Shown: positions 21,899-34,345 of the stretch, one piece after another | Layout of the letters: every line of letters starts with the position of its first letter | Numbering within the stretch: position 1 is the first letter of the stretch | Source of the DNA: Variovorax paradoxus | Lineage (GTDB): Bacteria; Pseudomonadota; Gammaproteobacteria; Burkholderiales; Burkholderiaceae_C | DNA: 64,000 bases | Reading direction: 5' to 3' | NCBI RefSeq assembly: GCF_024734665.1 | Contig: NZ_CP102931.1 | Coordinates: 4,834,001 to 4,898,000, forward strand | Translations under genes and position numbers: made by a program | Notes under the pieces: generated by a model | The model's input: only the letters and a program-made list of their open reading frames with translations | The model's database searches: none | What the model was told of the DNA's origin: nothing

Positions 21899-23167
21899 TC
21901 AGTTCTTGCCGATCTCGGTCAGCAGCCGCGTGACGAGATAAAGGCGCGGCACGATCGAGTCGACTTCGATGTACTCGTCGCGCGCGTGGTAGCCGAAGCC
22001 CGCGAGGCCAAAGCTCTCGACCACCGTCGCCTTGCCCGAACGACCCGCATAGCCCGCGTCGGTGCCGCCGCCGGTCATCGGCGTCAGCGCGAGGTCGCGG
22101 TCGATTTCCTTGTAGATGGCCTGCGCCTTCTCAGCCAGCGCGCGGCCCTTGTCGCCCGCGATGAAGGCCGGGCGGCCCACTTCCACCTTCACCGTGGTCT
22201 CGGTATCGGGAATGAGCTTGCCGGCCGCGATCTTCGCCTGCAGCACCTCGTTGAGCTTCTTCTCGGCACCGGGCTGCGTGATGCGGATGTCGCCCAGCGC
22301 CTGCGCCTTCTCGGTGATCTGGTTGATCGGGCCAGTGGCGCGCGCCACGGTCCAGTTGAGCGTCACGCCGGGGATGTCCTTGGCGAGATCCTTGGTCTGC
22401 AGCATCTGGTACGACAGCTCGTACAGCGCGTTGCGGCCCAGTTCGGGCGCGGCGCCGGCGTGTGCCGCGCGGCCTTTCACTTCCATCGTGGCTTGCGCGA
22501 TGCCGGCCGCGCCCAGCAGCAGCGACTCGCCCTTGGCTACCGACTTCGCCGCCGTCGGCTCGAACGACAGCACTGTGTCGTGCTGGTCGGCCATGGTGGC
22601 GATCAGTTCGCCGGAACCGACCGAGCCCACTTCCTCGTCGGGGTTCATCAGCACGGTGAGCGTGTCGTAGTCGCGCCAGCCAGCATCGGCCAGGATCTTC
22701 AGCGAGGCCATCATCACGGCCAGGCCTCCCTTGTCGTCGGCGATGCCGGGGCCGTAGATGCGGTTGCCATCGACCTTGTAGGGCTGGCTGCTCAGGATGC
22801 CCGGCGCATACACCGTGTCCATGTGGCCCTGCAGCATGATCTTGCGCTTGCCCGTGCCCTTGATCGTGCCGATCACGAGGTCGGCGCCCGCGCCGGCAGT
22901 GGCCTTGCGGCGCTCGGTCTTGAAGCCGGCAGCCTTCAGGCGCCCTTCCACCACGTCCGCCATCTTGAGCAGGCCGTCGACGTTGAGGCTGCCCGATTCG
23001 ATCAGCACCATCTCCTTGAGGTTGTCGATCACCGCGGGCTGTGCCTTCTCGGCGGCGGCGAGCAGCTTCGCATCGGGCGCGGCGTGTGCACCGGCGACGA
23101 CACCGAGCGCCAGGCTGCAGGCCAGGGCCATGGAACGAAGCGGGAAGGAGGACAAACGCAAGCTCAT
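21899..23167 (-). CDS. M20 metallopeptidase, glutamate carboxypeptidase type (CPG2-like), exported
   Basis: The 422-residue protein has a signal peptide (about 1-29, ending AHAA). The di-zinc site motifs are GHMDTV, GIADDKGG, PDEEVGS with the catalytic Glu, and the C-terminal FGYHARDE His. A lid/dimerisation domain sits in the middle (about 215-330). Relatives remove C-terminal glutamate from folates and other N-acyl amino acids in the periplasm. I start it at 23167, preceded by GAGAA; the frame is open 72 codons further but without signal-like sequence. A second family member lies at 50725-52017. It converges on the DUF3300 gene. Confidence 0.92.
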   Translation of the reverse strand: MSLRLSSFPLRSMALACSLALGVVAGAHAAPDAKLLAAAEKAQPAVIDNLKEMVLIESGSLNVDGLLKMADVVEGRLKAAGFKTERRKATAGAGADLVIGTIKGTGKRKIMLQGHMDTVYAPGILSSQPYKVDGNRIYGPGIADDKGGLAVMMASLKILADAGWRDYDTLTVLMNPDEEVGSVGSGELIATMADQHDTVLSFEPTAAKSVAKGESLLLGAAGIAQATMEVKGRAAHAGAAPELGRNALYELSYQMLQTKDLAKDIPGVTLNWTVARATGPINQITEKAQALGDIRITQPGAEKKLNEVLQAKIAAGKLIPDTETTVKVEVGRPAFIAGDKGRALAEKAQAIYKEIDRDLALTPMTGGGTDAGYAGRSGKATVVESFGLAGFGYHARDEYIEVDSIVPRLYLVTRLLTEIGKN

Positions 23168-23302
23168 GGTGTTTTTCTCGGGAGTGAATGACGGCACACA
23201 GCATAGCCACGCGCTCGTGCCGTGCGAGCAAATCGGGGACACGGCAACGACAGGGTTTGCCCGACTGGTCCGCCGCAGGGCTCCATACGCAAAAGCTACC
23301 GC

Positions 23303-23353
23303 AATGCATTCCGGAAAATGTATTTGTGGATATGCATGGCGGCTCCTAGCATC
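23303..23353 (+). promoter_or_regulatory. Promoter/operator shared with the 25671 operon (copy 1)
   Basis: AATGCATTCCG (23303-23313), then GTATTT (23320-23325), GGATATG (23328-23334) and CTAGCATC (23346-23353). The same blocks occur with identical spacing at 25578-25628. TTGTGG (23324-23329) and TAGCAT (23347-23352) are 17 bases apart and would be the -35 and -10. The upstream block is the likely LysR site. It drives the MFS gene at 23402. Confidence 0.7.
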
Positions 23354-23401
23354 GGCCGCATCAGCGCCAAAGAGCAGCTGCATCCATCAGGAGACAAAAA
23401 C

Positions 23402-24640
23402 ATGTCATCGCTTCCACTCGCCGGGGCCAGCCGCCCGCCACGCGCCCTCCCCTACGCCAGCCGCTTCTCGATCGTCGTCTGCTTCCTGATCGCATTGATC
23501 GACGGCTACGACACGCTGATGCTGTCCTTCGTCGCGCCGCTCATCTCCAAGGAATGGGGCATGCCGCCCGGCGCCTTCGGCAAGGTGTTCGCCGTGAGCT
23601 TCGCGGGCGCTGTGGTGGGCGCACTCTCCGTGGGTGCGGCGGCCGACCGCTTCGGCCGCCGGCGGCTGCTGCTCGCTTCGATCCTGGTGGCAGGCGGCTT
23701 CATCCTGCTGAGCGCGACATCGGCCAGCCCGGAGCAACTGATGCTGTGGCGCTTTCTCTCTGGCATCGGCCTTGGCGGCGCGATTCCCACCATTTCGGCA
23801 CTGGCGGCCGAGCATGCGCATCCGGATCAACGCAGCGCGACGGTCTCGCGCATGTTCCTGGGCTTTCCCATTGGGGCGGTGGCCGGCGGCGCCATCACGG
23901 CGGCGCTGATGCAGTCGGTGGGCTGGCGCGGCATCTTCATCGGTGGCGGCACGCTCGCGCTGGCGCTGCTGCCGCTGGTGTTCGCAATATCCGAGTCGGG
24001 GCGCACGAGCACCACGGCAGCGGACGCAAGCCCCGCCCATGCCAAGCGCCCGCTCGCCGAACTCGTCGCAGACGGACGCGGCCCGGGCACGGTGCTGATC
24101 GCCACCGCTGCCTTCATGATCCTGCTGGTCAGCTACTTCCTGCTGAGCTGGACACCCAGCGTGCTCGCCATGAACGGCATGAGCCCGCAGCGCTCGGCGC
24201 TCGCTGGCGTGATGCTCAACGTGGGCGGCGTGGCCGGCGCCTTCGCCATGTCCTTCGTGGTGGCGCGGCGCAGCCCCTTCGGACCGGTGGCGCTGTGCCT
24301 GGCGCTGGGCGCTGCGCTCGTGCCCTTCTTCGGCTTCCACATCGTCGGCAGCGAGGTCGCCGCCTTCTGCCTGGTGTTCGCCATCGGCCTGCTGGTGATC
24401 GGCGGGCAGATGAACATCCCCGCGCTGTGCGTGCACTTCTATCCGGCGAGCGTGCGCGCGACCGGCGTGGGGCTGTCGATGTCGGTCGGCCGCATCGGCT
24501 CCATCGTGGGGCCGCTGGTCGGTGGGCTGCTGGTGGGTGCGAAGTTGCCGTGGGGGCAGCTGTTCTTGCTCGCCGCGATCCCGGCCTTCATCGCGGCGGC
24601 GGCCCTGGGCTGGATCGCTTACCGCAAGCCGCGCGGCTGA
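23402..24640 (+). CDS. MFS transporter of the aromatic acid:H+ symporter (AAHS) type
   Basis: The 412-residue protein has twelve predicted membrane helices. Helix 1 carries the AAHS signature ALIDGYDTLMLSF, and the loop 2-3 motif is GAAADRFGRRR. Relatives such as PcaK and BenK import aromatic acids. AGGAG lies 9 bases before the ATG; the frame is open 60 codons upstream, but that part contains the promoter. The gene shares its promoter architecture with the five-gene operon at 25671, so I infer it imports that pathway's substrate under control of the LysR gene between them. Confidence 0.9.
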   Translation: MSSLPLAGASRPPRALPYASRFSIVVCFLIALIDGYDTLMLSFVAPLISKEWGMPPGAFGKVFAVSFAGAVVGALSVGAAADRFGRRRLLLASILVAGGFILLSATSASPEQLMLWRFLSGIGLGGAIPTISALAAEHAHPDQRSATVSRMFLGFPIGAVAGGAITAALMQSVGWRGIFIGGGTLALALLPLVFAISESGRTSTTAADASPAHAKRPLAELVADGRGPGTVLIATAAFMILLVSYFLLSWTPSVLAMNGMSPQRSALAGVMLNVGGVAGAFAMSFVVARRSPFGPVALCLALGAALVPFFGFHIVGSEVAAFCLVFAIGLLVIGGQMNIPALCVHFYPASVRATGVGLSMSVGRIGSIVGPLVGGLLVGAKLPWGQLFLLAAIPAFIAAAALGWIAYRKPRG

Positions 24641-24650
24641 CAGATCGTCG

Positions 24651-25559
24651 TCAGCGCTTGCGACTCGACGCGACCTGCGTGCCGCGCAACAGCCGCAACA
24701 GGCTGTCGAGGTGCGGATTGGCGTCTGCATCGCGGTAGCCCAGATACAGGCTCGACACCGCGTCCTTGTCGAGGATGCGGCTGTACAGCACCCCTTCGAG
24801 CTGGATGCACTGCGTGTCGGCCGGCACGATGGCCACGCCGAAGCCCGCCGCCACCAGCCCGACCATGGTCGAGGCCTCCCGCGTCTCGTGCATCACCGCC
24901 GGGCGGAAGCCCGCCTTGGCGCACAGCTCCTGCACCTTCCAGTACAGGCCGATGCCCGCGTCGCGCGGATAGACGATCAGCGGCACGTCCTTCAGTTCGC
25001 GGATGTGGATGCCCTTGCCACGCGTGAGCACGTGCTGCTGCGGCATCGCCGCGACCAGCGGCGCCGAGTACCACTCCTCGATGGTCACGCCCACCGGAAT
25101 GCTCACATTGGGCTTGCGCAGCACGCCGAGGTCGAGCTCGCGGGCATTGATGGCGTCGAGCTGATGCATCGACGCCATTTCCCGCAACTGCAGCTCGACC
25201 GCCGGAAAGCTCGCGCGGTACTGGCGAATGCCCGACGGCAGCGCCGTCGTGAGCATCGACGACGCAGTGAAGCCCACGTTGAGCTTGCCGACCTCGCCCG
25301 CCGCCGCGCTCTGCACTTCGTCCTTCGCGCTCTGCACCGAGGCAAGGATGGTGCGCGCCCGGTCGAGAAAGTGCCGCCCGGCCTGCGTGAGATACACGCG
25401 GCGCTTGTCGCGCTCGAAGAGCTGCACGCCCAACTCTTCTTCGAGCCCGCGAATCTGCGTGCTCAGCGGCGGCTGTGCCATGTAGAGGCGTTCCGCGGCG
25501 CGGGTGAAGTTGAGTTCTTCCGCCACGGCGACGAAGTAGCGCAGGTGTCGAAGTTCCAC
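24651..25559 (-). CDS. LysR-family regulator, CatR/CbnR-like, of the flanking aldolase regulon
   Basis: The 302-residue protein has an N-terminal winged HTH with the segment HLRYFVAVAEELNFTRAA typical of the CatR/BenM/CbnR branch, which controls aromatic catabolism. A dimerisation helix and the effector domain (about 90-295) follow. I choose the GTG at 25559 because GGAG lies 7 bases upstream; a longer form adds about 18 residues unlike the family. It is divergent from the operon at 25671, and its probable sites lie both in that intergenic region and before the MFS gene at 23402. Confidence 0.92.
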   Translation of the reverse strand: MELRHLRYFVAVAEELNFTRAAERLYMAQPPLSTQIRGLEEELGVQLFERDKRRVYLTQAGRHFLDRARTILASVQSAKDEVQSAAAGEVGKLNVGFTASSMLTTALPSGIRQYRASFPAVELQLREMASMHQLDAINARELDLGVLRKPNVSIPVGVTIEEWYSAPLVAAMPQQHVLTRGKGIHIRELKDVPLIVYPRDAGIGLYWKVQELCAKAGFRPAVMHETREASTMVGLVAAGFGVAIVPADTQCIQLEGVLYSRILDKDAVSSLYLGYRDADANPHLDSLLRLLRGTQVASSRKR

Positions 25560-25577
25560 GATATCTCCAGCGTATCG

Positions 25578-25628
25578 AATGCAATCCGAATCCGGTATTT
25601 CCGGATATGACACCCATTCTCTAGCATC
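25578..25628 (+). promoter_or_regulatory. Promoter/operator shared with the MFS gene (copy 2)
   Basis: AATGCAATCCG (25578-25588), GTATTT (25595-25600), GGATATG (25603-25609) and CTAGCATC (25621-25628), each at the same distance as in the copy at 23303-23353. TTCCGG (25599-25604) and TAGCAT (25622-25627) are 17 bases apart. A perfect inverted repeat, ATCCGG-N5-CCGGAT (25590-25606), overlaps the -35 region. Confidence 0.72.
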
Positions 25629-25670
25629 CCTTCACACCTTTACAACCACAGAGACAAAGGAAGAACCCGC

Positions 25671-26516
25671 ATGGTGCAAGACAGCGCAACGGCGTCCGCC
25701 GACGCCGCATCGACCAACCTCGTCGTGAGCCGACTGCGCCAGCGCCTGCCGGTGACGGCGCTCGGCATCCGCGCCTCGCGCACGCCCGACATCGCACGCA
25801 TCGCCAAGGCCAGCGGCCACCACTCGATCTGGATAGACCTGGAGCACAGCAGCATCGCCATCGACGCGGCCGTGCAGATCTGCGCCGCTGCAATGGACAT
25901 CGGCCTCATGCCCTTCGTGCGCGTGCCCGAGCGCGAGTATGGCGTGATCGGCCGGCTGCTCGACGGCGGCGCGGGCGGCATCATCGCGCCGCGCATCGAG
26001 ACCGTGGCGCAGGCCGAAGACCTCGTGGCTGCCTGCCGCTTTCCGCCGCTGGGCCACCGCTCGGCCATCGGCACTCTGCCGCACGTGGGCTATCGCAAGA
26101 TGGCTGCGGCGGATTTCAACGTCGCCATGAACCGCGCCACTGCGCTGAAGGTGCTGATCGAAAGCCCGCTGGGCATCGAGAACATCGAGCGCATCGCCGC
26201 GGTGCCGGGCATCGACATCGTGGGCATCGGCACCAACGACCTGAGCGCCGAGCTGGGTGTGGCCGGCGACTTCAAGCACCCGCTGGTTCGTGCCGCGCAC
26301 GAGACGGCGCTGGCCGCCTGCCTGCGCGTGGGCAAGCCGCTCGCCATCGGCGGCATTGCCGACGCGGCCTACTCGGCCGAGCTGGTGCACCGCGGCGCGG
26401 CACCTTTCCTCATGACCGGCATCGACACCGACATGCTGCTGGCCGCCGCGCACGAGCGCGTCGCGAAGGCGTTGAGTTCGGTCGGCGTGGAGAACGGCGA
26501 TGCGGTCGTGCGCTGA
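25671..26516 (+). CDS. HpcH/HpaI-family class II aldolase/citrate lyase-like enzyme
   Basis: The 281-residue TIM-barrel enzyme has the metal and pyruvate-binding landmarks of HpaI relatives: IDLEHS, the RVPERE arginine, the acidic metal ligand in IESPLGIENIERI, and GTNDLS near the active site. HpaI enzymes cleave 4-hydroxy-2-oxo acids to pyruvate plus an aldehyde, commonly the last step of aromatic meta-cleavage. GGAAG lies 9 bases before the ATG. It is the first gene of a five-gene operon behind a probable LysR-controlled promoter. Its actual substrate is unknown. Confidence 0.9.
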   Translation: MVQDSATASADAASTNLVVSRLRQRLPVTALGIRASRTPDIARIAKASGHHSIWIDLEHSSIAIDAAVQICAAAMDIGLMPFVRVPEREYGVIGRLLDGGAGGIIAPRIETVAQAEDLVAACRFPPLGHRSAIGTLPHVGYRKMAAADFNVAMNRATALKVLIESPLGIENIERIAAVPGIDIVGIGTNDLSAELGVAGDFKHPLVRAAHETALAACLRVGKPLAIGGIADAAYSAELVHRGAAPFLMTGIDTDMLLAAAHERVAKALSSVGVENGDAVVR

Positions 26517-27501
26517 AGCAGCCCTGCGCCGCACAGGTGCCGTGCTCGCACTGCTGCTCGGCATGCTGGCCTTGCCGGGCTCGGCATTCGCCCAGGTTGC
26601 ACAAGGAGCGACGACCCTCGTCGTGCCGACGCCGCCGGGTGGCCCCATCGACCGCGTCGCACGCATCGTGGCGCAGGGCCTGTCTTCCGTGCTGGGCGAA
26701 CCAGTGGTGGTCGAAAACAAGGGCGGAGCGGCCGGCAAGATCGGCGTGCAAGCGGCGCTGCGGGCCGCGCGCGACGGCCACACGCTGATCGCGGTTTCGC
26801 CTTCCATCGCATCGGTCAATCCGGTGGTCGACAAGGCGGCGGGCTATGACCCGCTCAAGGACTTCGATCCGCTCGGCATCGTCGCCTTCAACGACGGCGT
26901 GCTGGCGGTGCGCGCCGACCTGCCCGTGACCGACATGCCGGGGCTCGTGGCCTATGCGAAGGCGCACCCCGGCACGTTGACATACGGCTCCTTCGGCGTC
27001 GGCACCAGCCTGCATCTGCAGACCGAGGAGCTGCTGCACACGCTCGGCATCACGGCGCGGCACGTGCCCTACAAGGGCGAGGCTCAAGCGATGAATGCGT
27101 TGATCGCGGGCGAGGTCGACATGATGGCCTACGTCACTTCGCCCATCGTGCCCTTCGTGGCGAACGGCCGCGCGCGGGCGCTGGCCGCCACGGCATCGAC
27201 CCGCTGGGCTGCGCTGCCCGCGGTGCCGAGCTTCGCGGAGACCGGCATCGACGCGCTGCGCAACTACACCTACCGCTCGTGGGTCGGCATCGTGCTGCCG
27301 GCCGGTGTGCCGGCGGCTGCGCGGCAACGGACCACCGCAGCGCTGCGCGAGGTGCTGGCCCGGCCCGAGACGCTCAAGGCGCTCGAAGCGCAGGGCTTCG
27401 CGCCGGTCACGCCCGACGCCGAGACGATGCGCCGCACCGTCGCCGCCGAACTCGAGCGCAACCGCCGGCTGATTGCCGCTGGCGGCATCTCGCTCGAATG
27501 A
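26500..27501 (+). CDS. Bug/TctC-family periplasmic substrate-binding protein
   Basis: The 333-residue protein has a signal peptide (about residues 1-32, ending SAFAQ) and the TctC fold: VPTPPGGPIDRVAR at the start of the mature domain, VENKGGAAGKIG, and the ligand-loop region GSFGVGTSLH. Bug proteins bind carboxylates for tripartite TctABC importers or act as sensors; no tctA or tctB is present here, as is common in Bordetella and Variovorax. It overlaps the aldolase gene by 17 bases, so the two are coupled. It probably captures the operon's substrate. Confidence 0.92.
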   Translation: MRSCAEAALRRTGAVLALLLGMLALPGSAFAQVAQGATTLVVPTPPGGPIDRVARIVAQGLSSVLGEPVVVENKGGAAGKIGVQAALRAARDGHTLIAVSPSIASVNPVVDKAAGYDPLKDFDPLGIVAFNDGVLAVRADLPVTDMPGLVAYAKAHPGTLTYGSFGVGTSLHLQTEELLHTLGITARHVPYKGEAQAMNALIAGEVDMMAYVTSPIVPFVANGRARALAATASTRWAALPAVPSFAETGIDALRNYTYRSWVGIVLPAGVPAAARQRTTAALREVLARPETLKALEAQGFAPVTPDAETMRRTVAAELERNRRLIAAGGISLE

Positions 27502-28443: not shown

Positions 28444-29544
28444 ATGCCGAACGAAAGAACGACCGCGATGAAAAACATCCAGGACCTCGACACCTCCGGC
28501 GCGCGCGCGGCGGAGACCTTCATTCACGGCGGCATGCGCTACCTCGTGGTGCCCCAGCTCGCGGTCGACGTGACGGGGCAACCCGCGATGATCACCGTGG
28601 GCAACAGCAATATCGATGCGCTGGTCTACCGCTGGCAGGACGAGGCCTTCGTGCCGCACGCGCGACTGCCCGTGCCGGGGGGCGAGGACGCGGAGTTCTT
28701 CGAGATCGGCGGCCGCGCCTTCCTGGCCACCGCCAGCCTGAAGTCGGGCGCCGGTCCGTACGAGCTCAATGTCGACTCGGTCATCTTCGAACTGAAGGAC
28801 GGCGCGTTCACCGAGTTCCAGCGCGTGCCCACTTTCGCGGCCAAGCAATGGACGCACTTCACCATCGGCGAACGCCACTTTCTGGCGCTCGCACAGGGCG
28901 TGGCGATGGAAGGCACCGAGGCCCGGAATCCGTCGAAGTCGGCCATCTACGAATGGAACGGCGAGCGCTTCGCCGAGTTCCAGGTCATCGACTCGACCTG
29001 GGGCTACAACTTCGCGTTCTTCGAGATTGGCGGGCAGCGCTTCCTGGCTTATGCCGATCACGTGGCGCGCTCGCGCGTCATGCTGTGGAGCGGCACGCGC
29101 TTCGAAGACTTCCAGCTGCTCGACGGCAAGACCGGCCGCGCTTTCCAGTTCTTCGAGGCACAGGGCGAAGCTTGGCTGGCCTTTGCCTGCCTGCACGACG
29201 ACACCGTGCTGCTGCGCTGGAACGGCACCGGCTTCGTCGCGCACCAGACGCTGAGCGGCCCCGGCGGGCGCGAGTTTGTCTGGCGCGAAGATGCGCAGGG
29301 CGGCGAGCTGGTGCAGATCAACTTCCTGCTCGGCAGCCGCGAGGCGCCCATCACTTCGCTGACCTCGGTTGGCTACCGCTTCGCCGACGGCAAGCTGGTG
29401 CCGCAGCGCGAGTTTCCGACCTCCGGCGCCACCGATGCCTGCGCCTTCGAAGACAACGGCCATGCCTACCTGGTGGTGACCAACAGCCTCGGCGCCGACA
29501 TCCGCTTTCGCACGCCGAGCAAGGTGTACCGGCTCGGCGCATAG
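28444..29544 (+). CDS. Seven-repeat EPTP beta-propeller protein, cytoplasmic
   Basis: The protein has about 366 residues and no signal peptide. I count seven EPTP-type repeats by their core strand: FIHGGMRYLVV, FEIGGRAFLAT, FTIGERHFLAL, FEIGGQRFLAY, FEAQGEAWLAF, a weaker sixth (EDAQGGELVQI), and FEDNGHAYLVV. Seven such repeats make a closed propeller, as in LGI proteins. The bacterial role is unknown: it could be an enzyme, such as a lactonase or isomerase, or a scaffold. An AAGG site precedes the ATG at 28444; an ATG at 28468 is also possible. It sits in the aldolase operon. Confidence 0.8.
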   Translation: MPNERTTAMKNIQDLDTSGARAAETFIHGGMRYLVVPQLAVDVTGQPAMITVGNSNIDALVYRWQDEAFVPHARLPVPGGEDAEFFEIGGRAFLATASLKSGAGPYELNVDSVIFELKDGAFTEFQRVPTFAAKQWTHFTIGERHFLALAQGVAMEGTEARNPSKSAIYEWNGERFAEFQVIDSTWGYNFAFFEIGGQRFLAYADHVARSRVMLWSGTRFEDFQLLDGKTGRAFQFFEAQGEAWLAFACLHDDTVLLRWNGTGFVAHQTLSGPGGREFVWREDAQGGELVQINFLLGSREAPITSLTSVGYRFADGKLVPQREFPTSGATDACAFEDNGHAYLVVTNSLGADIRFRTPSKVYRLGA

Positions 29545-29558
29545 ACAGGAGCCCCACC

Positions 29559-30749
29559 ATGACGGCAAACCCCAACTTCCAGAGCCCCGAGTTCCTGCGC
29601 CTCTTCGAGACCTACACCGCGAGCGCCGACAGCATCGGCGCGAAGATGACGCACGCCACCGCCGAGGCCGCGCCCGACGCGGCGCTGATCGTTGCCACGG
29701 CGGCCGACTTCATCCTGTTCCCCGGCAGGGGCAGGCCGCCGGAGGTCGAGGGCTACCGGCTCACGACGCGCGGCTTCAAGGAGCTGGCGGCGGTGTCGCA
29801 CCTTGGCCCCGCACTGGCCTCGCTGGTGCGGCTGCGCGAACTCGACCCCGAAGGCACGCTGTGGCGCAGCGAAACCGAACGCCTGCTGGCCGCCACCGTG
29901 GCCGCGCGTGAAGCGAACAGCGTGGCGCTCTGGCGCGACGACATCGCGGTGCCCGCCTACCGGGGCCGCGAGACGGCCATCGCGAACATGGTGCACTACG
30001 CCTGCGAAGCCACAGAGCGCTACATCGAGCGCGCCCTCGCCCACCCCGAAACCCTCACTGCCGCCGACCTGCGCACGCACTACCTCGAAGCCACGGGCGA
30101 TGCCATCGGCGCGAGCGTGCCGATGAACAAGGTGATGATCGCCACCTTCTTCCTCGTCGGCCTGGACACCGGGCACCGCGTGATCGCGTGGTTCGAGCGC
30201 CACCGCATCGACTGGGCGAACGCAATGGTGCTGATCGTGGGCAGGCAGGGCCGCCCCACCGCGGGCGTTACCTGGAGCACCAACGCCGTGTGCTCGATGA
30301 TCCTCGCCTCGTCGCACCATGCGCTACCACTGGAGCGCGTGTACATCGCACCGCATGCACCGGCGCCCACCTTCACCTACCCCGTCGACCTGGCGGCCGT
30401 GTCTGCCCACGAGGCGCCGATGCGCAAGCTCTGGTGGGCGACACGGGCCATGAGCGACCTGGGGCCGATGATGTACGAGGGCTATCCGCGCTTCGCCCCC
30501 GGGCGTGGCGGCCGGCCGGTGCTGCAGCCCGACACCACCGAAGTCAGCGAGATGCCCGCCATCGGTGGACCGGAGGACTGGCATGCGCTCAACACCCGCA
30601 TGCGCGTGATCCTCGAAGACCCGCGGCAACTGCTGGCAGGGTGCGTTACCGACTACGCGGCGGATCAGCTGCAGGGCAATGGCAACGAACCGCTGAAGGC
30701 GGTGGTGCCGGGCCTCGACGGCACGGACTACCCCGCGTATTTCTCCTGA
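29559..30749 (+). CDS. Uncharacterised 396-residue cytoplasmic protein of the aldolase operon
   Basis: I do not recognise a catalytic family with confidence; it may fall in DUF5624, but this is from memory. It has no signal peptide and no membrane helix. It is alpha/beta in composition, with a run of conserved-looking segments (MNKVMIATFFLVGLDTGHR, TWSTNAVCSM, PAPTFTYPVDL). AGGAG lies 9 bases before the ATG. It is the last gene of the operon, 14 bases after the EPTP gene, and converges on the XRE-cupin gene with a 3-base gap. Context suggests an enzyme or accessory of the same pathway. Confidence 0.75.
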   Translation: MTANPNFQSPEFLRLFETYTASADSIGAKMTHATAEAAPDAALIVATAADFILFPGRGRPPEVEGYRLTTRGFKELAAVSHLGPALASLVRLRELDPEGTLWRSETERLLAATVAAREANSVALWRDDIAVPAYRGRETAIANMVHYACEATERYIERALAHPETLTAADLRTHYLEATGDAIGASVPMNKVMIATFFLVGLDTGHRVIAWFERHRIDWANAMVLIVGRQGRPTAGVTWSTNAVCSMILASSHHALPLERVYIAPHAPAPTFTYPVDLAAVSAHEAPMRKLWWATRAMSDLGPMMYEGYPRFAPGRGGRPVLQPDTTEVSEMPAIGGPEDWHALNTRMRVILEDPRQLLAGCVTDYAADQLQGNGNEPLKAVVPGLDGTDYPAYFS

Positions 30750-30752
30750 GGG

Positions 30753-31487
30753 CTAGGCGCCCCTTCCGCTTGTTGGCGCCTTGGCCTTCACGGTCTTGGG
30801 TGCCGCGGACTTGGCCGGCACCGGCGCCTTGCGCGCCTCTCCCTCGCGCGCGGACTGCATGTGCCGGCTCTCGCCGATGGTCATGCCCACGATCCGCGCG
30901 AGCTGGCGGCTCACGCTGATGTACGCATGGCCGAGGCGGCTGTCGAAGTACAGCGAGTCGCCGCGCGCCATGTGCAGCACTTCGCCATTGTCGAAGTGCA
31001 CCTCGATCTCGCCTGACAGCACATAGGCGAACTCTTCGCCCGCATGGCGCACGAAGTCTTCCGGTCCGTGGATGCGCCGCGCATGCACCGTGCCCACGAT
31101 GGGGCTCATCTGCTTGCCCGCCGCCGTGGTGCCGAGGAACTCGTAGGCAATCGACAGCCCCCGGTACACCACGCCCTTGCCCGCGCGCGTGACCACCGGC
31201 CCGTCGAGCTGCGCGGGCTTGACGCCGGCGCCCGCGAACATCGCGTTCATGTCCATCTCGAGCGCGCGGCCCAGCGCGGTGAAGTTTTCATAGCCCAACG
31301 CCAACTGGCCGCGCTCGGCGCGCGAGATGGTGGTGATCGACACGCCCGAGCGCTCGGCCAGCTGTGCCAGCGTCCAGCCGAAACGCTTGCGCGCACTGCG
31401 CAGGCGATGACCGAAAGTGGTGCGGTCCAGCGTGGGCGGCTCGTCCTTCGGCTTTGTCGCCGTCCTGGTCCCTGTGTGTGGATTCAC
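30753..31487 (-). CDS. XRE-family regulator with C-terminal cupin domain
   Basis: The 244-residue protein has an XRE HTH (about residues 26-82: GHRLRSARKRFGWTLAQLAE and VSITTISRAERGQL) and a small-molecule-binding cupin_2 domain (about 130-210, with the motif HAGEEFAYVLSG). A basic Lys/Ala tail follows. PuuR-like proteins of this build repress amine or amino-acid catabolic operons. The GTG start at 31487 has AGAAAG upstream and gives a protein of family length; an open frame upstream runs through the operator region. It is divergent from the D-amino-acid operon. Confidence 0.88.
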   Translation of the reverse strand: MNPHTGTRTATKPKDEPPTLDRTTFGHRLRSARKRFGWTLAQLAERSGVSITTISRAERGQLALGYENFTALGRALEMDMNAMFAGAGVKPAQLDGPVVTRAGKGVVYRGLSIAYEFLGTTAAGKQMSPIVGTVHARRIHGPEDFVRHAGEEFAYVLSGEIEVHFDNGEVLHMARGDSLYFDSRLGHAYISVSRQLARIVGMTIGESRHMQSAREGEARKAPVPAKSAAPKTVKAKAPTSGRGA

Positions 31488-31573
31488 GCTTGGCTTTCTC
31501 TTGTGATGCAAGTGGATTCTGCCAGCCGGGCGGTGCGCCATCCATGCCAACCCGCATGACGCGGGCGCGGAAG

Positions 31574-31587
31574 TTGCGTATACGCAA
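31574..31587. promoter_or_regulatory. Operator-like palindrome 1
   Basis: TTGCGTATACGCAA, a perfect 14-bp palindrome between the XRE-cupin gene and the D-amino-acid operon. It is the first of three related sites and starts exactly 15 bases from the second. Confidence 0.72.
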
Positions 31588-31588
31588 A

Positions 31589-31602
31589 TTGCGTTGACGC
31601 AA
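31589..31602. promoter_or_regulatory. Operator-like palindrome 2
   Basis: TTGCGTTGACGCAA, with perfect 6-bp arms around TG. It is adjacent to site 1, so two dimers could bind side by side. Confidence 0.7.
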
Positions 31603-31650
31603 ATTTCACCGAAGCGGTGCACCATGGTTTCCCCTTGGTGCCACCAAATC

Positions 31651-31670
31651 AATTTGCGTATCCGCAAATT
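31651..31670. promoter_or_regulatory. Operator-like palindrome 3, overlapping the operon -35
   Basis: AATTTGCGTATCCGCAAATT: 8-bp perfect arms around TATC. Its TTGCGT (31654-31659) coincides with the predicted -35 of the operon, so binding would repress. Confidence 0.75.
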
Positions 31671-31682
31671 TGTACCTACACT
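31654..31682 (+). promoter_or_regulatory. Predicted sigma-70 promoter of the D-amino-acid operon
   Basis: TTGCGT, 17 bases, TACACT. Transcription would begin about 7 bases later, near 31689, two bases before the ATG at 31691, which has no Shine-Dalgarno. The first mRNA is therefore likely leaderless. Confidence 0.6.
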
Positions 31683-31690
31683 TTTTGCCG

Positions 31691-32848
31691 ATGACTTCCA
31701 GCACCCCAACGCCCGTCGTGGCAGATTTCCTCGTGATCGGCGGCGGCATCGCCGGGGCTTCGGTGGCCCATTGGCTCGCGCCGCATGCCAGCGTGATCCT
31801 TCTCGAACGCGAGTCGCAGCCTGGCTACCACTCCACCGGCCGCTCTGCCGCCCTCTTCATGGAAAGCTACGGCACTCCGCAGGTGCGCGCCCTCACCATG
31901 GCGAGCCGTGCCTTCCTCGAACATCCGCCCGAAGGCTTCTCGGAGCACCCGCTGCTCACGCCGCGCGGCGCGATGATGGTCGCGGGTGCCGACCACATGG
32001 CCGAGCTCGAAGCCCACTGGGAGGTGCTGCGCGCCATGGACACCGGCGCCTCGCGCCTGAGCGGCGAGCAGGCCCGCGAGATGGTGCCGGCGCTGCGCCC
32101 CGAGCAAGTGATGGGCGCGGTGTACGAACCCGATGCGTCCGACATGGACGTGCACGCCATCCACCAGGGCTACCTGCGCGGCATGCGGCGCGCTGGCGGC
32201 AAGCTGGTGTGCGATGCCGGCGTGACGGCCATCGAGCGCGTGGGCGAGCGCTGGCGCGTGGAGGCCGGCGGCGCCGTGTACGAGGCGCCCGTGGTGCTCA
32301 ACGCGGCGGGCGCATGGGTCGACACCGTCGCGCGCATGGCGGGCGTGCCGCAGCTGGGCATCGAGCCGCGCCGGCGCTCGGCCTTCATCTTCGCGCCGCC
32401 CGAAGGCCAGAGCGTCGCGCACTGGCCCATGGTGTTCGGTGCCGACGAGGGCTGGTACATCAAGCCCGACGCCGGCATGCTGCTCGGCTCGCCGGCCAAT
32501 GCCGATCCGGTCGAGCCGCAGGACATACAGCCCGAAGAGATGGACATCGCCATCGCCATGCACCGCATCGAGGAAGCGACCACGCTCGCCATTCGCCGGC
32601 CCACCCGCACCTGGGCCGGCCTGCGCTCCTTCGTGGCTGACGGCGACCTGGTGGGCGGCTTCGAGCCCGGCGTGCCCGGCTTCTTCTGGGTGGCGGCGCA
32701 AGGCGGCTACGGCATCCAGACATCGGCCGCCATGGGCGAGGCCTGCGCCGCGCTGGCACGCGGACTGCCGCTGCCGAAGCGCATCGCCTCCTTCGGGCTC
32801 ACGGCCGAGATGCTGGGCCCGCAGCGGCTGCGCACGGCCACGGCCTGA
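31691..32848 (+). CDS. FAD-dependent D-amino-acid dehydrogenase/oxidase, DauA-like
   Basis: The 385-residue flavoprotein of the DAO fold has the Rossmann motif VIGGGIAGAS (residues 15-24) and the flavin-contact stretch PGYHSTGRSAA (44-54), which is strongly characteristic of the D-arginine dehydrogenase group. After that stretch, P. aeruginosa DauA has His48 in AAHYTV; here the place is Leu55 (AALFMESY), so the preferred side chain may differ. It should oxidise D-amino acids to 2-oxo acids in the cytoplasm. It is the first gene of an operon that also makes a dipeptide-type importer and a D-aminoacylase. Confidence 0.85.
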   Translation: MTSSTPTPVVADFLVIGGGIAGASVAHWLAPHASVILLERESQPGYHSTGRSAALFMESYGTPQVRALTMASRAFLEHPPEGFSEHPLLTPRGAMMVAGADHMAELEAHWEVLRAMDTGASRLSGEQAREMVPALRPEQVMGAVYEPDASDMDVHAIHQGYLRGMRRAGGKLVCDAGVTAIERVGERWRVEAGGAVYEAPVVLNAAGAWVDTVARMAGVPQLGIEPRRRSAFIFAPPEGQSVAHWPMVFGADEGWYIKPDAGMLLGSPANADPVEPQDIQPEEMDIAIAMHRIEEATTLAIRRPTRTWAGLRSFVADGDLVGGFEPGVPGFFWVAAQGGYGIQTSAAMGEACAALARGLPLPKRIASFGLTAEMLGPQRLRTATA

Positions 32849-32893
32849 GCGCGGACGCACGACAAAAAACAACCCACTCCAAGAGACATCACC

Positions 32894-34345
32894 ATGCGCG
32901 TCTTCAGTGCCTCCCTCGCCACCGAAACCAACACCTTCGGCCCGATGCCGACCGGCCTCGCCTCCTTCAAGGACCGTGGCTACTTCCCCGCCGGCAAGCA
33001 CCCCGAAGCGATGACTCTGTTCTCGGGCCCGCTGTGGGCCGCGCGCATGCGCGGCGCCGACAAGGGCTGGACGCTCTTCGAAGGCATGGTGGCCGGCGCG
33101 CAGCCCAGCGGTACCACCACGCGCCACGCCTACGAAACCCTGCGCGACGAATTGCTGGCCGACCTGCGCGCTGTGCTGCCGGTCGACATGGTGCTGCTCG
33201 GCCTGCACGGCGCGATGGTGGCCGACGGCTACGACGACTGCGAAGGTGACCTGCTGGCGCGCGTGCGGCAGATCGTCGGGCCTGGCGTGGTGATCGGCGC
33301 GGAGCTCGACCCGCACAACCACCTCACGCCCGAGATGGTGCAGAACTCCGACCTGATGATCTCGTTCAAGGAGTACCCGCACACCGACGTACTCGAACGC
33401 GGGCTGGAGCTGGTGGACCTCTGCGCCGCCATGGTCGAAGGCAAGGTCAAGCCGGTGGCCGCGGTGGTCGACTGCGACATGATCGTCACGGTCCATACCT
33501 CGCGCCAGCCGGCGCGCGGCTTCGTCGAGCGCATGCAGTCGCTCGAAGGCAAGAACGGCGTGCTGTCGGTGTCGCTCACGCATGGCTTCTCTTGGGGCGA
33601 CGTGTCCGAAATGGGCACCAAGGTGTTGGTCTACACAGATGGCAACCAGGCCCAAGCCGACGCTCTTGCGCGCCAGCTCGCCGACGAGGTCATCGCCATG
33701 CGCGACGGCCTCACGGTCAACTACCCGAGCATCGATGCCTCGCTCGACGAAGCGCTGGCCTTCGACGGCGGCCCGGTGGTGCTGTCCGACGGTGCGGACA
33801 ACCCCGGCGGCGGTGCGGCAAGCGACTCCACCTTCATCCTGCGCCGCATGGTCGAGCGCGGCATCACCAACGCGGCGCTGGGCCCGCTGTGGGACCCGAT
33901 CGCGGTGCGCATTGCATTCGACGCAGGCGTGGGCGCCAGGCTGCAGATGCGCATCGGCGGCAAGATCAGCCCGCTCTCGGGCGATCCGCTGGATCTGGAA
34001 TGCACCGTGAAGGCGCTGAAGCACGACCTGGTGATGACGGGCCTGGCCGGCACGCCCACGCTGATGGGCGACAGCGCGCTGATCGAGGCGAACGGCATCG
34101 AGATCGTGCTGATCACGCTGCGCAACCAGGCGATGGGCACCGACCTGTTCACGCAGCTGGGCTGCGACCTCGCCGCGAAGAAGATCATCGTCGTGAAGTC
34201 GTCGCAGCACTTCTATGCCTCGTACTCCAAGGTGGCGAAGCACGTCATCTACGCGGGCGCACCGGGCGCCGTGACGCTCGATCTGAACACGCTGCCGTAC
34301 CGCAAGGCCCGCCTGCCCAAGTGGCCGATCGGCGTCGCCGCCTGA
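32894..34345 (+). CDS. M81-family metallopeptidase, MlrC/microcystinase-like
   Basis: The 483-residue protein has the two-domain MlrC structure. The N-terminal domain has ATETNTF, GLHGAM and the zinc-site segment GAELDPHNH; the C-terminal MlrC_C domain has the DGADNPGGGAASDSTFIL motif. MlrC of Sphingomonas cleaves the linear tetrapeptide of microcystin, which contains D-amino acids and a beta-amino acid. In this operon it probably hydrolyses an imported peptide or amide with D-residues. It is 45 bases after the flavoprotein gene, with AAGAGA upstream of the ATG. Confidence 0.92.
   Translation: MRVFSASLATETNTFGPMPTGLASFKDRGYFPAGKHPEAMTLFSGPLWAARMRGADKGWTLFEGMVAGAQPSGTTTRHAYETLRDELLADLRAVLPVDMVLLGLHGAMVADGYDDCEGDLLARVRQIVGPGVVIGAELDPHNHLTPEMVQNSDLMISFKEYPHTDVLERGLELVDLCAAMVEGKVKPVAAVVDCDMIVTVHTSRQPARGFVERMQSLEGKNGVLSVSLTHGFSWGDVSEMGTKVLVYTDGNQAQADALARQLADEVIAMRDGLTVNYPSIDASLDEALAFDGGPVVLSDGADNPGGGAASDSTFILRRMVERGITNAALGPLWDPIAVRIAFDAGVGARLQMRIGGKISPLSGDPLDLECTVKALKHDLVMTGLAGTPTLMGDSALIEANGIEIVLITLRNQAMGTDLFTQLGCDLAAKKIIVVKSSQHFYASYSKVAKHVIYAGAPGAVTLDLNTLPYRKARLPKWPIGVAA

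What the first reader, a model, noticed from the sequence alone, without database searches (positions are those of the whole stretch)
23303..25628. The same 51-bp promoter architecture in front of a transporter gene and a separate operon
AATGCAnTCCG, GTATTT, GGATATG and CTAGCATC occur in this order with identical spacing at 23303-23353 and 25578-25628, both on the plus strand. The -35/-10 pairs (17-base spacer, TAGCAT) coincide too. The LysR gene lies between the two. This predicts a regulon with one LysR protein activating an aromatic-acid-type MFS importer and a five-gene catabolic operon.
Basis: partly seen in the sequence, partly recalled or inferred. Interest (0 to 1): 0.7.

Follow-up and report, generated by a model that had tools for sequence, protein, structure and literature searches.

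The report
Shared LysR promoter box, small regulon
Two neighbouring promoters in a Variovorax-type soil bacterium carry the same control box, which relatives also keep, and a LysR-type regulator lying between them probably uses it to switch on a transporter gene and a breakdown operon together; the mechanism is textbook, but the pathway is undescribed.

Summary
The two 51-mers are 33/51 identical, and the pattern finds no other place in the 7.29-Mb genome at up to 3 mismatches.

Relatives show a slightly different functional element: ATAY-N7-RTAT (BenM-type T-N11-A box; 25561-25575, upstream of the reported block), then GTATTTCCRRATAT over the -35 region, then CTASSAT at -10. The reported AATGCAnTCCG block is not conserved.

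The composite element occurs in 19 of 101 genus genomes, exactly the 19 with this LysR. A matrix trained on 12 sites from outside the close clade scores the operon promoter 65.5 bits and the MFS promoter 36.5 (only with one extra spacer base). It also scores two further promoters of this genome: tctC-porin 56.6, hbpS-tauE 54.6. Other sequence reaches at most 7.1. In another genus, lysR and the operon lie about 970 kb apart, yet the operon keeps the box.

Best explanation: a canonical LysR-type regulon of four promoters for uptake and breakdown of an unidentified carboxylate. Binding, activation and inducer are untested; "aromatic" is unproven. New member of a known kind.

The parts
24651..25559 (-). 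LysR-type regulator gene (302 aa, GTG start)
   Evidence: PF00126 and PF03466; DNA-binding domain closest to BenM; 19 of 101 genus genomes hold an ortholog at 59-100% identity, the next-best genome has 41%
25561..25575 (+). Operon promoter: recognition site ATATCTCCAGCGTAT (ATAY-N7-RTAT, T-N11-A); its CTCC (25565-25568) is the complement of a GGAG just upstream of the lysR start
25595..25608 (+). Operon promoter: activation-site-like block GTATTTCCGGATAT over the -35 region
   Evidence: 1.68 bits per column over 35 sites
25621..25627 (+). Operon promoter: -10 block CTAGCAT (hexamer TAGCAT)
   Evidence: 1.52 bits per column over 35 sites
23285..23299 (+). MFS promoter: degenerate recognition site ATACGCAAAAGCTAC, spacer one base longer than in the operon
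23320..23333 (+). MFS promoter: activation-site-like block GTATTTGTGGATAT
23346..23352 (+). MFS promoter: -10 block CTAGCAT
23402..24640 (+). MFS transporter gene (412 aa)
   Evidence: PF07690 150 bits; TIGR00895 255 bits, below its cut-off
25671..26516 (+). HpcH/HpaI aldolase-family gene, first gene of the operon
   Evidence: PF03328; nearest solved structure YfaU 2vws
26500..27501 (+). TctC/Bug-type periplasmic binding protein gene
   Evidence: PF03401
27498..28436 (+). Amidohydro_2 gene, LigI-like lactonase relative (start codon not settled)
   Evidence: PF04909; 2-pyrone-4,6-dicarboxylate hydrolase 4d8l is the best solved relative
28465..29544 (+). EPTP-repeat protein gene
   Evidence: PF03736; found in 17 of 101 genus genomes and 4 of 399 family genomes
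29550..30749 (+). DUF5624 protein gene, last gene of the operon
   Evidence: PF18538; solved relative 4jx2, named hypothetical protein

Best explanation
The two sites are operator-promoters of one LysR-type (LTTR) regulon. A LysR tetramer, probably the product of 24651-25559, would anchor on the ATAY-N7-RTAT dyad (centre about -66 from the inferred start of transcription) and, with its inducer, contact GTATTTCCRRATAT (centre about -33, over the -35 region) to recruit RNA polymerase to a promoter whose -35 is poor. In this genome it would drive four transcription units: the operon hpcH-tctC-amidohydrolase-EPTP-DUF5624, the MFS gene, tctC2-porin (C1:1197873, 3.66 Mb away) and hbpS-tauE (C1:4256261). 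Together they give outer-membrane entry, periplasmic capture, import, lactone hydrolysis and aldol cleavage of a carboxylic acid. Because the recognition dyad spans the lysR translation start region, lysR is probably autorepressed. Shown by computation: the box, its conservation and its co-occurrence with this LysR. Inferred: binding, activation, inducer, substrate, start of transcription, autoregulation.
For: Pattern unique in the genome. Conserved in all 19 hpcH promoters read. Composite pattern in 19 of 101 genus genomes, the same 19 that hold the LysR ortholog; reversed control 0 of 101. Box and LysR are uncoupled in place but not in occurrence: in G231 (another genus) lysR and the operon are about 970 kb apart and the operon keeps the box; in G321 (a third genus) MFS and hpcH each have their own box in another gene order. 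Unlinked sites in 5 of 19 LysR genomes against 0 of 82 others (p = 1.5e-4). A matrix from 12 of 23 sites outside the close clade scores the four own sites 65.5, 36.5, 56.6 and 54.6. Own site 4 and a G231 site both precede a TauE gene, 49% identical. DNA-binding domain and recognition helix close to BenM, whose Site 1 is ATAC-N7-GTAT (PMC6628147 figure legend). LTTR site near -65 plus -35 site is the usual geometry (PMC8407307 passages). The 21 LysRs of box-bearing loci form one side of a branch, 99/97.
Against: No binding, expression or start-site data. The operon promoter sits next to lysR, so its co-occurrence with lysR is partly trivial. The MFS site scores only 5.6 with the standard spacer and its right half-site is CTAC; 4 of 6 MFS promoters have the extra base. 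MFS is next to lysR only in 6 of 19 genus genomes plus G321. In the 399-genome scan 9 genomes without the EPTP gene gave single 2-mismatch hits and the reversed control hit 3 genomes, so the loose pattern alone is not proof. Site 4 (2 mismatches) lies in a stretch with low third-position G+C (0.67) and was not found in near relatives.
Confidence: 0.88

Rival explanations
1. The operon promoter is a LysR target, but the MFS promoter is a decayed copy or a chance look-alike and is not regulated by this LysR.
For: MFS recognition site is degenerate, off by one base in 4 of 6 genomes, and scores 36.5 only with an N20 spacer. Most LysR genomes have no MFS beside lysR.
Against: ABS and -10 are kept in all 6 MFS promoters with one base changed in L038 (GTATTG) and one in L035 (TTAGCAT); two of the 6 (L035, L036) have the standard spacing and L036 has ATAT-N7-ATAT. 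In G321 the MFS gene has its own box at 1 mismatch. 36.5 bits is far above the null.
Confidence: 0.07
2. The shared box is bound by another regulator, for example the XRE-cupin protein at 30753-31709 or another of the many LysR proteins.
For: The genome encodes many LysR relatives (23 scored matches, 193 first-look candidates), so the pairing by position is an inference.
Against: The XRE-cupin gene has no relative (E up to 1e-15) in any of the 20 relative loci searched. All 82 genomes without this ortholog also hold LysR relatives but lack the box. The geometry is that of an LTTR site divergent from its own gene.
Confidence: 0.03
3. The similarity is a recent duplication of promoter DNA with no continuing function.
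For: Promoter copying does occur here: unlinked sites in G059, G050, G086 and G091 carry the first codons of hpcH behind the -10.
Against: Flanks of the two window sites are unlike, the shared columns are the ones conserved between genomes, and spacer columns are not (1.11, 1.68 and 1.52 against 0.68 and 0.55 bits per column).
Confidence: 0.01
4. The conserved element acts as RNA (leader, riboswitch) rather than as DNA.
For: None found.
Against: The element lies upstream of and at the -10, outside the expected transcript; Rfam gives only two matches far below gathering score, both inside lysR and not at the sites.
Confidence: 0.01

Closest known systems
BenM/CatM sites at benA and catB of Acinetobacter baylyi (PMC6628147, figure legend seen)
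   Same: ATAC-N7-GTAT recognition site (T-N11-A), divergent regulator gene, several less perfect sites over the promoter; DNA-binding domain is the closest solved one
   Different: LysR scores 179.9 against a BenM cut-off of 600; no ben or cat gene in the operon; second site is GTAT-N6-ATAT, not ATAC-N7-GTGT-like (the latter recalled)
CatR, ClcR, AphT and CatR** regulons of Betaproteobacteria predicted by footprinting (PMC6449761, passages seen)
   Same: T-N11-A odd palindromes, divergent LysR gene, COG3181 (TctC) genes as regulon members, Comamonadaceae
   Different: Those regulons hold dioxygenase or catABC genes; consensus AkACC-N5-GGTAT; Variovorax, gallate and 2-pyrone do not occur in the main text
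ItcR, itaconate-responsive LysR protein (PDB 7w06; PMC9636186 passages)
   Same: Best full-length solved relative (196.7 bits)
   Different: About the distance of any paralog; inducer of the window protein unknown
LigI, 2-pyrone-4,6-dicarboxylate hydrolase (PDB 4d8l), and 4-sulfomuconolactone hydrolase (NF042924)
   Same: Amidohydrolase relatives (130 bits; 181.3 bits); the two HxH histidines, the later His and the Asp changed in 4dia align
   Different: NF042924 cut-off is 500; no ring-cleavage dioxygenase in the operon

Membership tests
LysR-type transcriptional regulator (LTTR) | N-terminal HTH_1 plus LysR_substrate domain | tested here: met
   PF00126 90.4 bits, PF03466 126.5 bits
LTTR operator-promoter | T-N11-A dyad near -65 of the target gene, divergent from the regulator gene | tested here: met
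   ATAY-N7-RTAT in 19 of 19 hpcH promoters; the start of transcription is inferred from the -10
LTTR operator-promoter | second (activation) site over the -35 | tested here: met
   GTATTTCCRRATAT at constant distance
LTTR operator-promoter | regulator binds the site and transcription responds to an inducer | not testable with these tools
   needs gel shift, footprint and reporter assays
BenM/CatM regulators of benzoate and catechol breakdown | regulator scores as BenM or CatM | tested here: not met
   179.9 and 170.7 bits against cut-offs of 600 and 580
BenM/CatM regulators of benzoate and catechol breakdown | ben or cat genes under control | tested here: not met
   no such gene among the ten proteins around the site; the other two own regulon loci hold tctC, porin, hbpS-like and tauE genes
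Aromatic acid:H+ symporter family (TIGR00895) for the MFS protein | score over the family cut-off | tested here: not met
   255 against 418.55 bits
2-pyrone-4,6-dicarboxylate lactonase (LigI) | catalytic residues and substrate-binding residues of LigI | tested here: inconclusive
   catalytic His and Asp positions align with 4d8l; substrate specificity cannot be read from it

The most novel reading that the evidence does not exclude
The regulon controls an undescribed breakdown route for a plant- or lignin-derived (possibly sulfonated, given tauE and the 4-sulfomuconolactone-hydrolase-like enzyme) lactone or pyrone carboxylic acid, in which EPTP-repeat and DUF5624 proteins, both without assigned function, are catalytic or carrier parts; and the regulon grows by copying the hpcH promoter together with its first codons in front of new genes (tctC, tannase-family esterase).
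Probability: 0.3. Interest if true: 0.55.

Novelty: new member of a known kind. Interest (0 to 1): 0.35.

Why it matters
It turns a by-eye promoter match into a defined, testable regulon: one LysR protein, a 67-base composite box and four promoters in one genome, with independent support from two other genera. It links an uncharacterised catabolic module (EPTP and DUF5624 families) to transport genes lying megabases away, which helps to find its substrate. The mechanism itself is textbook.

Tried and rejected
Rejected: AATGCAnTCCG as part of the functional box. Rejected: XRE-cupin protein as the common regulator. Rejected: RNA element. Rejected as chance: ten further one-mismatch ABS-like places of the own genome, none with a recognition site or -10 at the right distance (reversed control 3 hits), and G018:C14:255918, which has no -10. 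Led nowhere: Variovorax-type box in the alphaproteobacterial Chelativorans locus, 0 matches at up to 3 mismatches in 21 kb, although EPTP, DUF5624, HpcH and amidohydrolase genes and a LysR gene at 39% are there. Tannase-family genes exist in the own genome (6 matches, 5 places) but none at the four sites. Literature: DUF5624 gave 0 papers; some searches gave 3, 1 and 14 papers (10 of the 14 listed), seen as listings only; none by title or abstract start describes this regulon. The DUF5624 model is confident (pLDDT 86.8) but its fold search did not run, so no fold match is claimed. The set-equality figure 1/C(101,19) is not used as a test, because lysR and the operon promoter are neighbours.

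Full report
Check of the observation. The 51-mers share 33 of 51 bases, the next-best match in the window is 28/51, and the flanks show no similarity. The pattern of shared bases, at up to 3 mismatches, finds only these two places in the 7.29-Mb single-contig genome (the reversed control finds none). The -10 is shared; the -35 is not a sigma-70 -35 in either promoter (TTGTGG, TTCCGG), and the promoter scan of 23150-25720 finds no sigma-70 pair.

Surroundings. The M20-peptidase gene 21899-23167(-) and the MFS gene 23402-24640(+) are divergent around site 1. lysR 24651-25559(-) and the operon hpcH (25671), tctC, amidohydrolase, EPTP, DUF5624 (to 30749) are divergent around site 2. The organism is Variovorax by its nearest named protein (DUF5624 98% identical to one of Variovorax sp. 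OV084).

Footprinting. Among 101 genomes of the genus, 19 (own genome included) hold a LysR ortholog at 59-100% identity; the next-best genome is at 41%. Regions around the 18 others were fetched. Five close relatives (93%) have MFS beside lysR; the 13 others (59-66%) do not. In all 19 hpcH promoters the same three elements stand at the same distances: ATAY-N7-RTAT, 19 bases, a GTATTTCCRRATAT-like block, 12 bases, a CTASSAT-like -10. Exceptions: ATATTT for GTATTT in L048 and L052; one changed core base in L038 and in L039; a changed -10 in L047, L051 and L052. AATGCAnTCCG is exact in only 2 of the 19. Over 35 sites without the MFS ones, information is 1.11 (recognition site), 1.68 (activation block) and 1.52 (-10) bits per column, against 0.68 and 0.55 in the two spacers.

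The MFS site. Its recognition site is ATACGCAAAAGCTAC, one base further from the core in 4 of 6 genomes; L035 and L036 have the standard distance. It is the weakest of the four own sites.

Specificity. The composite pattern at up to 2 mismatches hits 19 of 101 genus genomes, the same 19 that have the LysR; the reversed control hits 0. The activation-block-to--10 pattern at up to 1 mismatch hits 17 of 101, all among the 19. The EPTP gene is in 17 of 101. G089 has lysR, hpcH, amidohydrolase and box but no EPTP match, so the box follows the LysR rather than EPTP; the other genome without an EPTP match, G100, is cut by a contig end. In 399 genomes of the family (141 genera) the EPTP gene is in 4. 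The composite pattern hits these 4 plus 9 others with a single 2-mismatch place each, which I did not follow up; the reversed control hits 3 genomes. So the loose pattern has a chance level, but only the 4 EPTP genomes have hits at 0 or 1 mismatch.

Uncoupling of regulator and targets. In G231 (another genus in the scan's labels) lysR (82% identical) stands at C1:113 kb, divergent from a tctC2-like gene with a box, and the hpcH operon stands at C1:1087 kb and keeps a perfect box. In G321 (a third genus) lysR is divergent from MFS with a box, and hpcH, downstream of MFS, has its own box. Sites far from lysR occur in 5 of the 19 LysR genomes (G000, G050, G059, G086, G091) and in 0 of 82 others, p = 1.5e-4; the count leaves out G018:C14:255918, 25 kb from lysR, 2 mismatches, no -10.

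The regulon in this genome. A matrix built from 12 of the 23 sites available from outside the close clade or unlinked (8 hpcH promoters of the distant group, two G231 and two G321 sites) scores own hpcH 65.5, tctC2-porin 56.6, hbpS-tauE 54.6 and MFS 36.5 with an N20 spacer (5.6 with N19). Ten Markov sequences of 64 kb have maxima from -13.7 to -3.9. In real sequence outside the sites the best values are -1.9 in the window and 7.1 in L086. tctC2-porin lies at C1:1197873, 3.66 Mb from lysR, but about 6.5 kb from lysR in G044, G059, G080 and G086. hbpS-tauE (C1:4256261, 2 mismatches) is supported by G231, where an unlinked box precedes cytochrome b561, yceI and tauE genes; the two TauE proteins are 49% identical. 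Ten other one-mismatch places of the activation block in this genome have neither recognition site nor -10.

Mechanism. The LysR DNA-binding domain is closest to BenM among solved structures, with recognition helix AQPPLSTQI against AQPPLSRQI. BenM/CatM Site 1 is ATAC-N7-GTAT (PMC6628147, figure-legend passage), and several relatives here have exactly that (L040, L052, G231, G321). LTTRs usually bind a T-N11-A site near -65 and an activation site at -35 (PMC8407307, passages). If transcription starts about 7 bases after the -10, the centres here are about -66 and -33. The recognition site begins 2 bases upstream of the lysR start codon and covers its GGAG, which makes autorepression likely (inference). 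The 21 LysRs of box-bearing loci are one side of a 99/97-supported branch among 34 sequences.

What the regulon does. Parts: porin, two TctC-type binding proteins, MFS importer, TauE-type permease, LigI-like amidohydrolase with catalytic positions conserved, HpcH-type aldolase, HbpS-like protein, EPTP and DUF5624 proteins. This fits uptake, lactone opening and retro-aldol cleavage of a carboxylic acid. No ring-cleaving dioxygenase is in the operon, and the MFS protein is below the aromatic-acid family cut-off, so 'aromatic' stays open. The nearest full-length solved LysR relative is the itaconate regulator ItcR (7w06; PMC9636186 passages), which only says that small carboxylates are plausible inducers.

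Known or new. Footprinted LysR regulons with TctC (COG3181) members in Betaproteobacteria are described (PMC6449761, passages). I found no description of this one (searches; listings only). It is a new member of a known kind.

Noticed in passing
L088:4482-6266 (G059), L089 (G050), L091:6387-7400 (G091), L090 (G086): Unlinked copies of the box are followed by the first codons of hpcH (MTSRDK... or close) fused in frame to TctC (L089, L091) or tannase-family (L088) genes; they look like duplicated hpcH promoters with most of hpcH lost, i.e. promoter capture. In L090 no clear target gene was identified.
   Followed up: partly
window 26500-27501: This tctC sits between hpcH and the amidohydrolase; it is absent there in the 4 close relatives whose operon was fetched and in L152, but present at 69-88% identity in L041-L044, L051 and L150.
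   Followed up: partly
L041-L046, L049 (hpcH promoters of distant relatives): The hpcH ATG lies about 6-12 bases after the -10, so the mRNA may be leaderless there, while the window has about 40 bases of leader.
   Followed up: no
L156:8889-14231: Chelativorans multitrophicus DSM 9103 (an alphaproteobacterium; lineage recalled) has LysR (39%), EPTP, DUF5624, HpcH and amidohydrolase genes in a row without the Variovorax-type box.
   Followed up: partly
L087:4779-6204 (G000:C1 about 4.255-4.256 Mb): The hbpS-tauE pair lies in a stretch with low third-position G+C (0.67), perhaps acquired DNA, yet carries the box.
   Followed up: partly
window 30753-34345: XRE-cupin regulator, DAO-type oxidase and a gene at 32894-34345 (MlrC-like by my recall, not tested) follow the operon; none of the three has a match in the 20 relative loci searched.
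   Followed up: no
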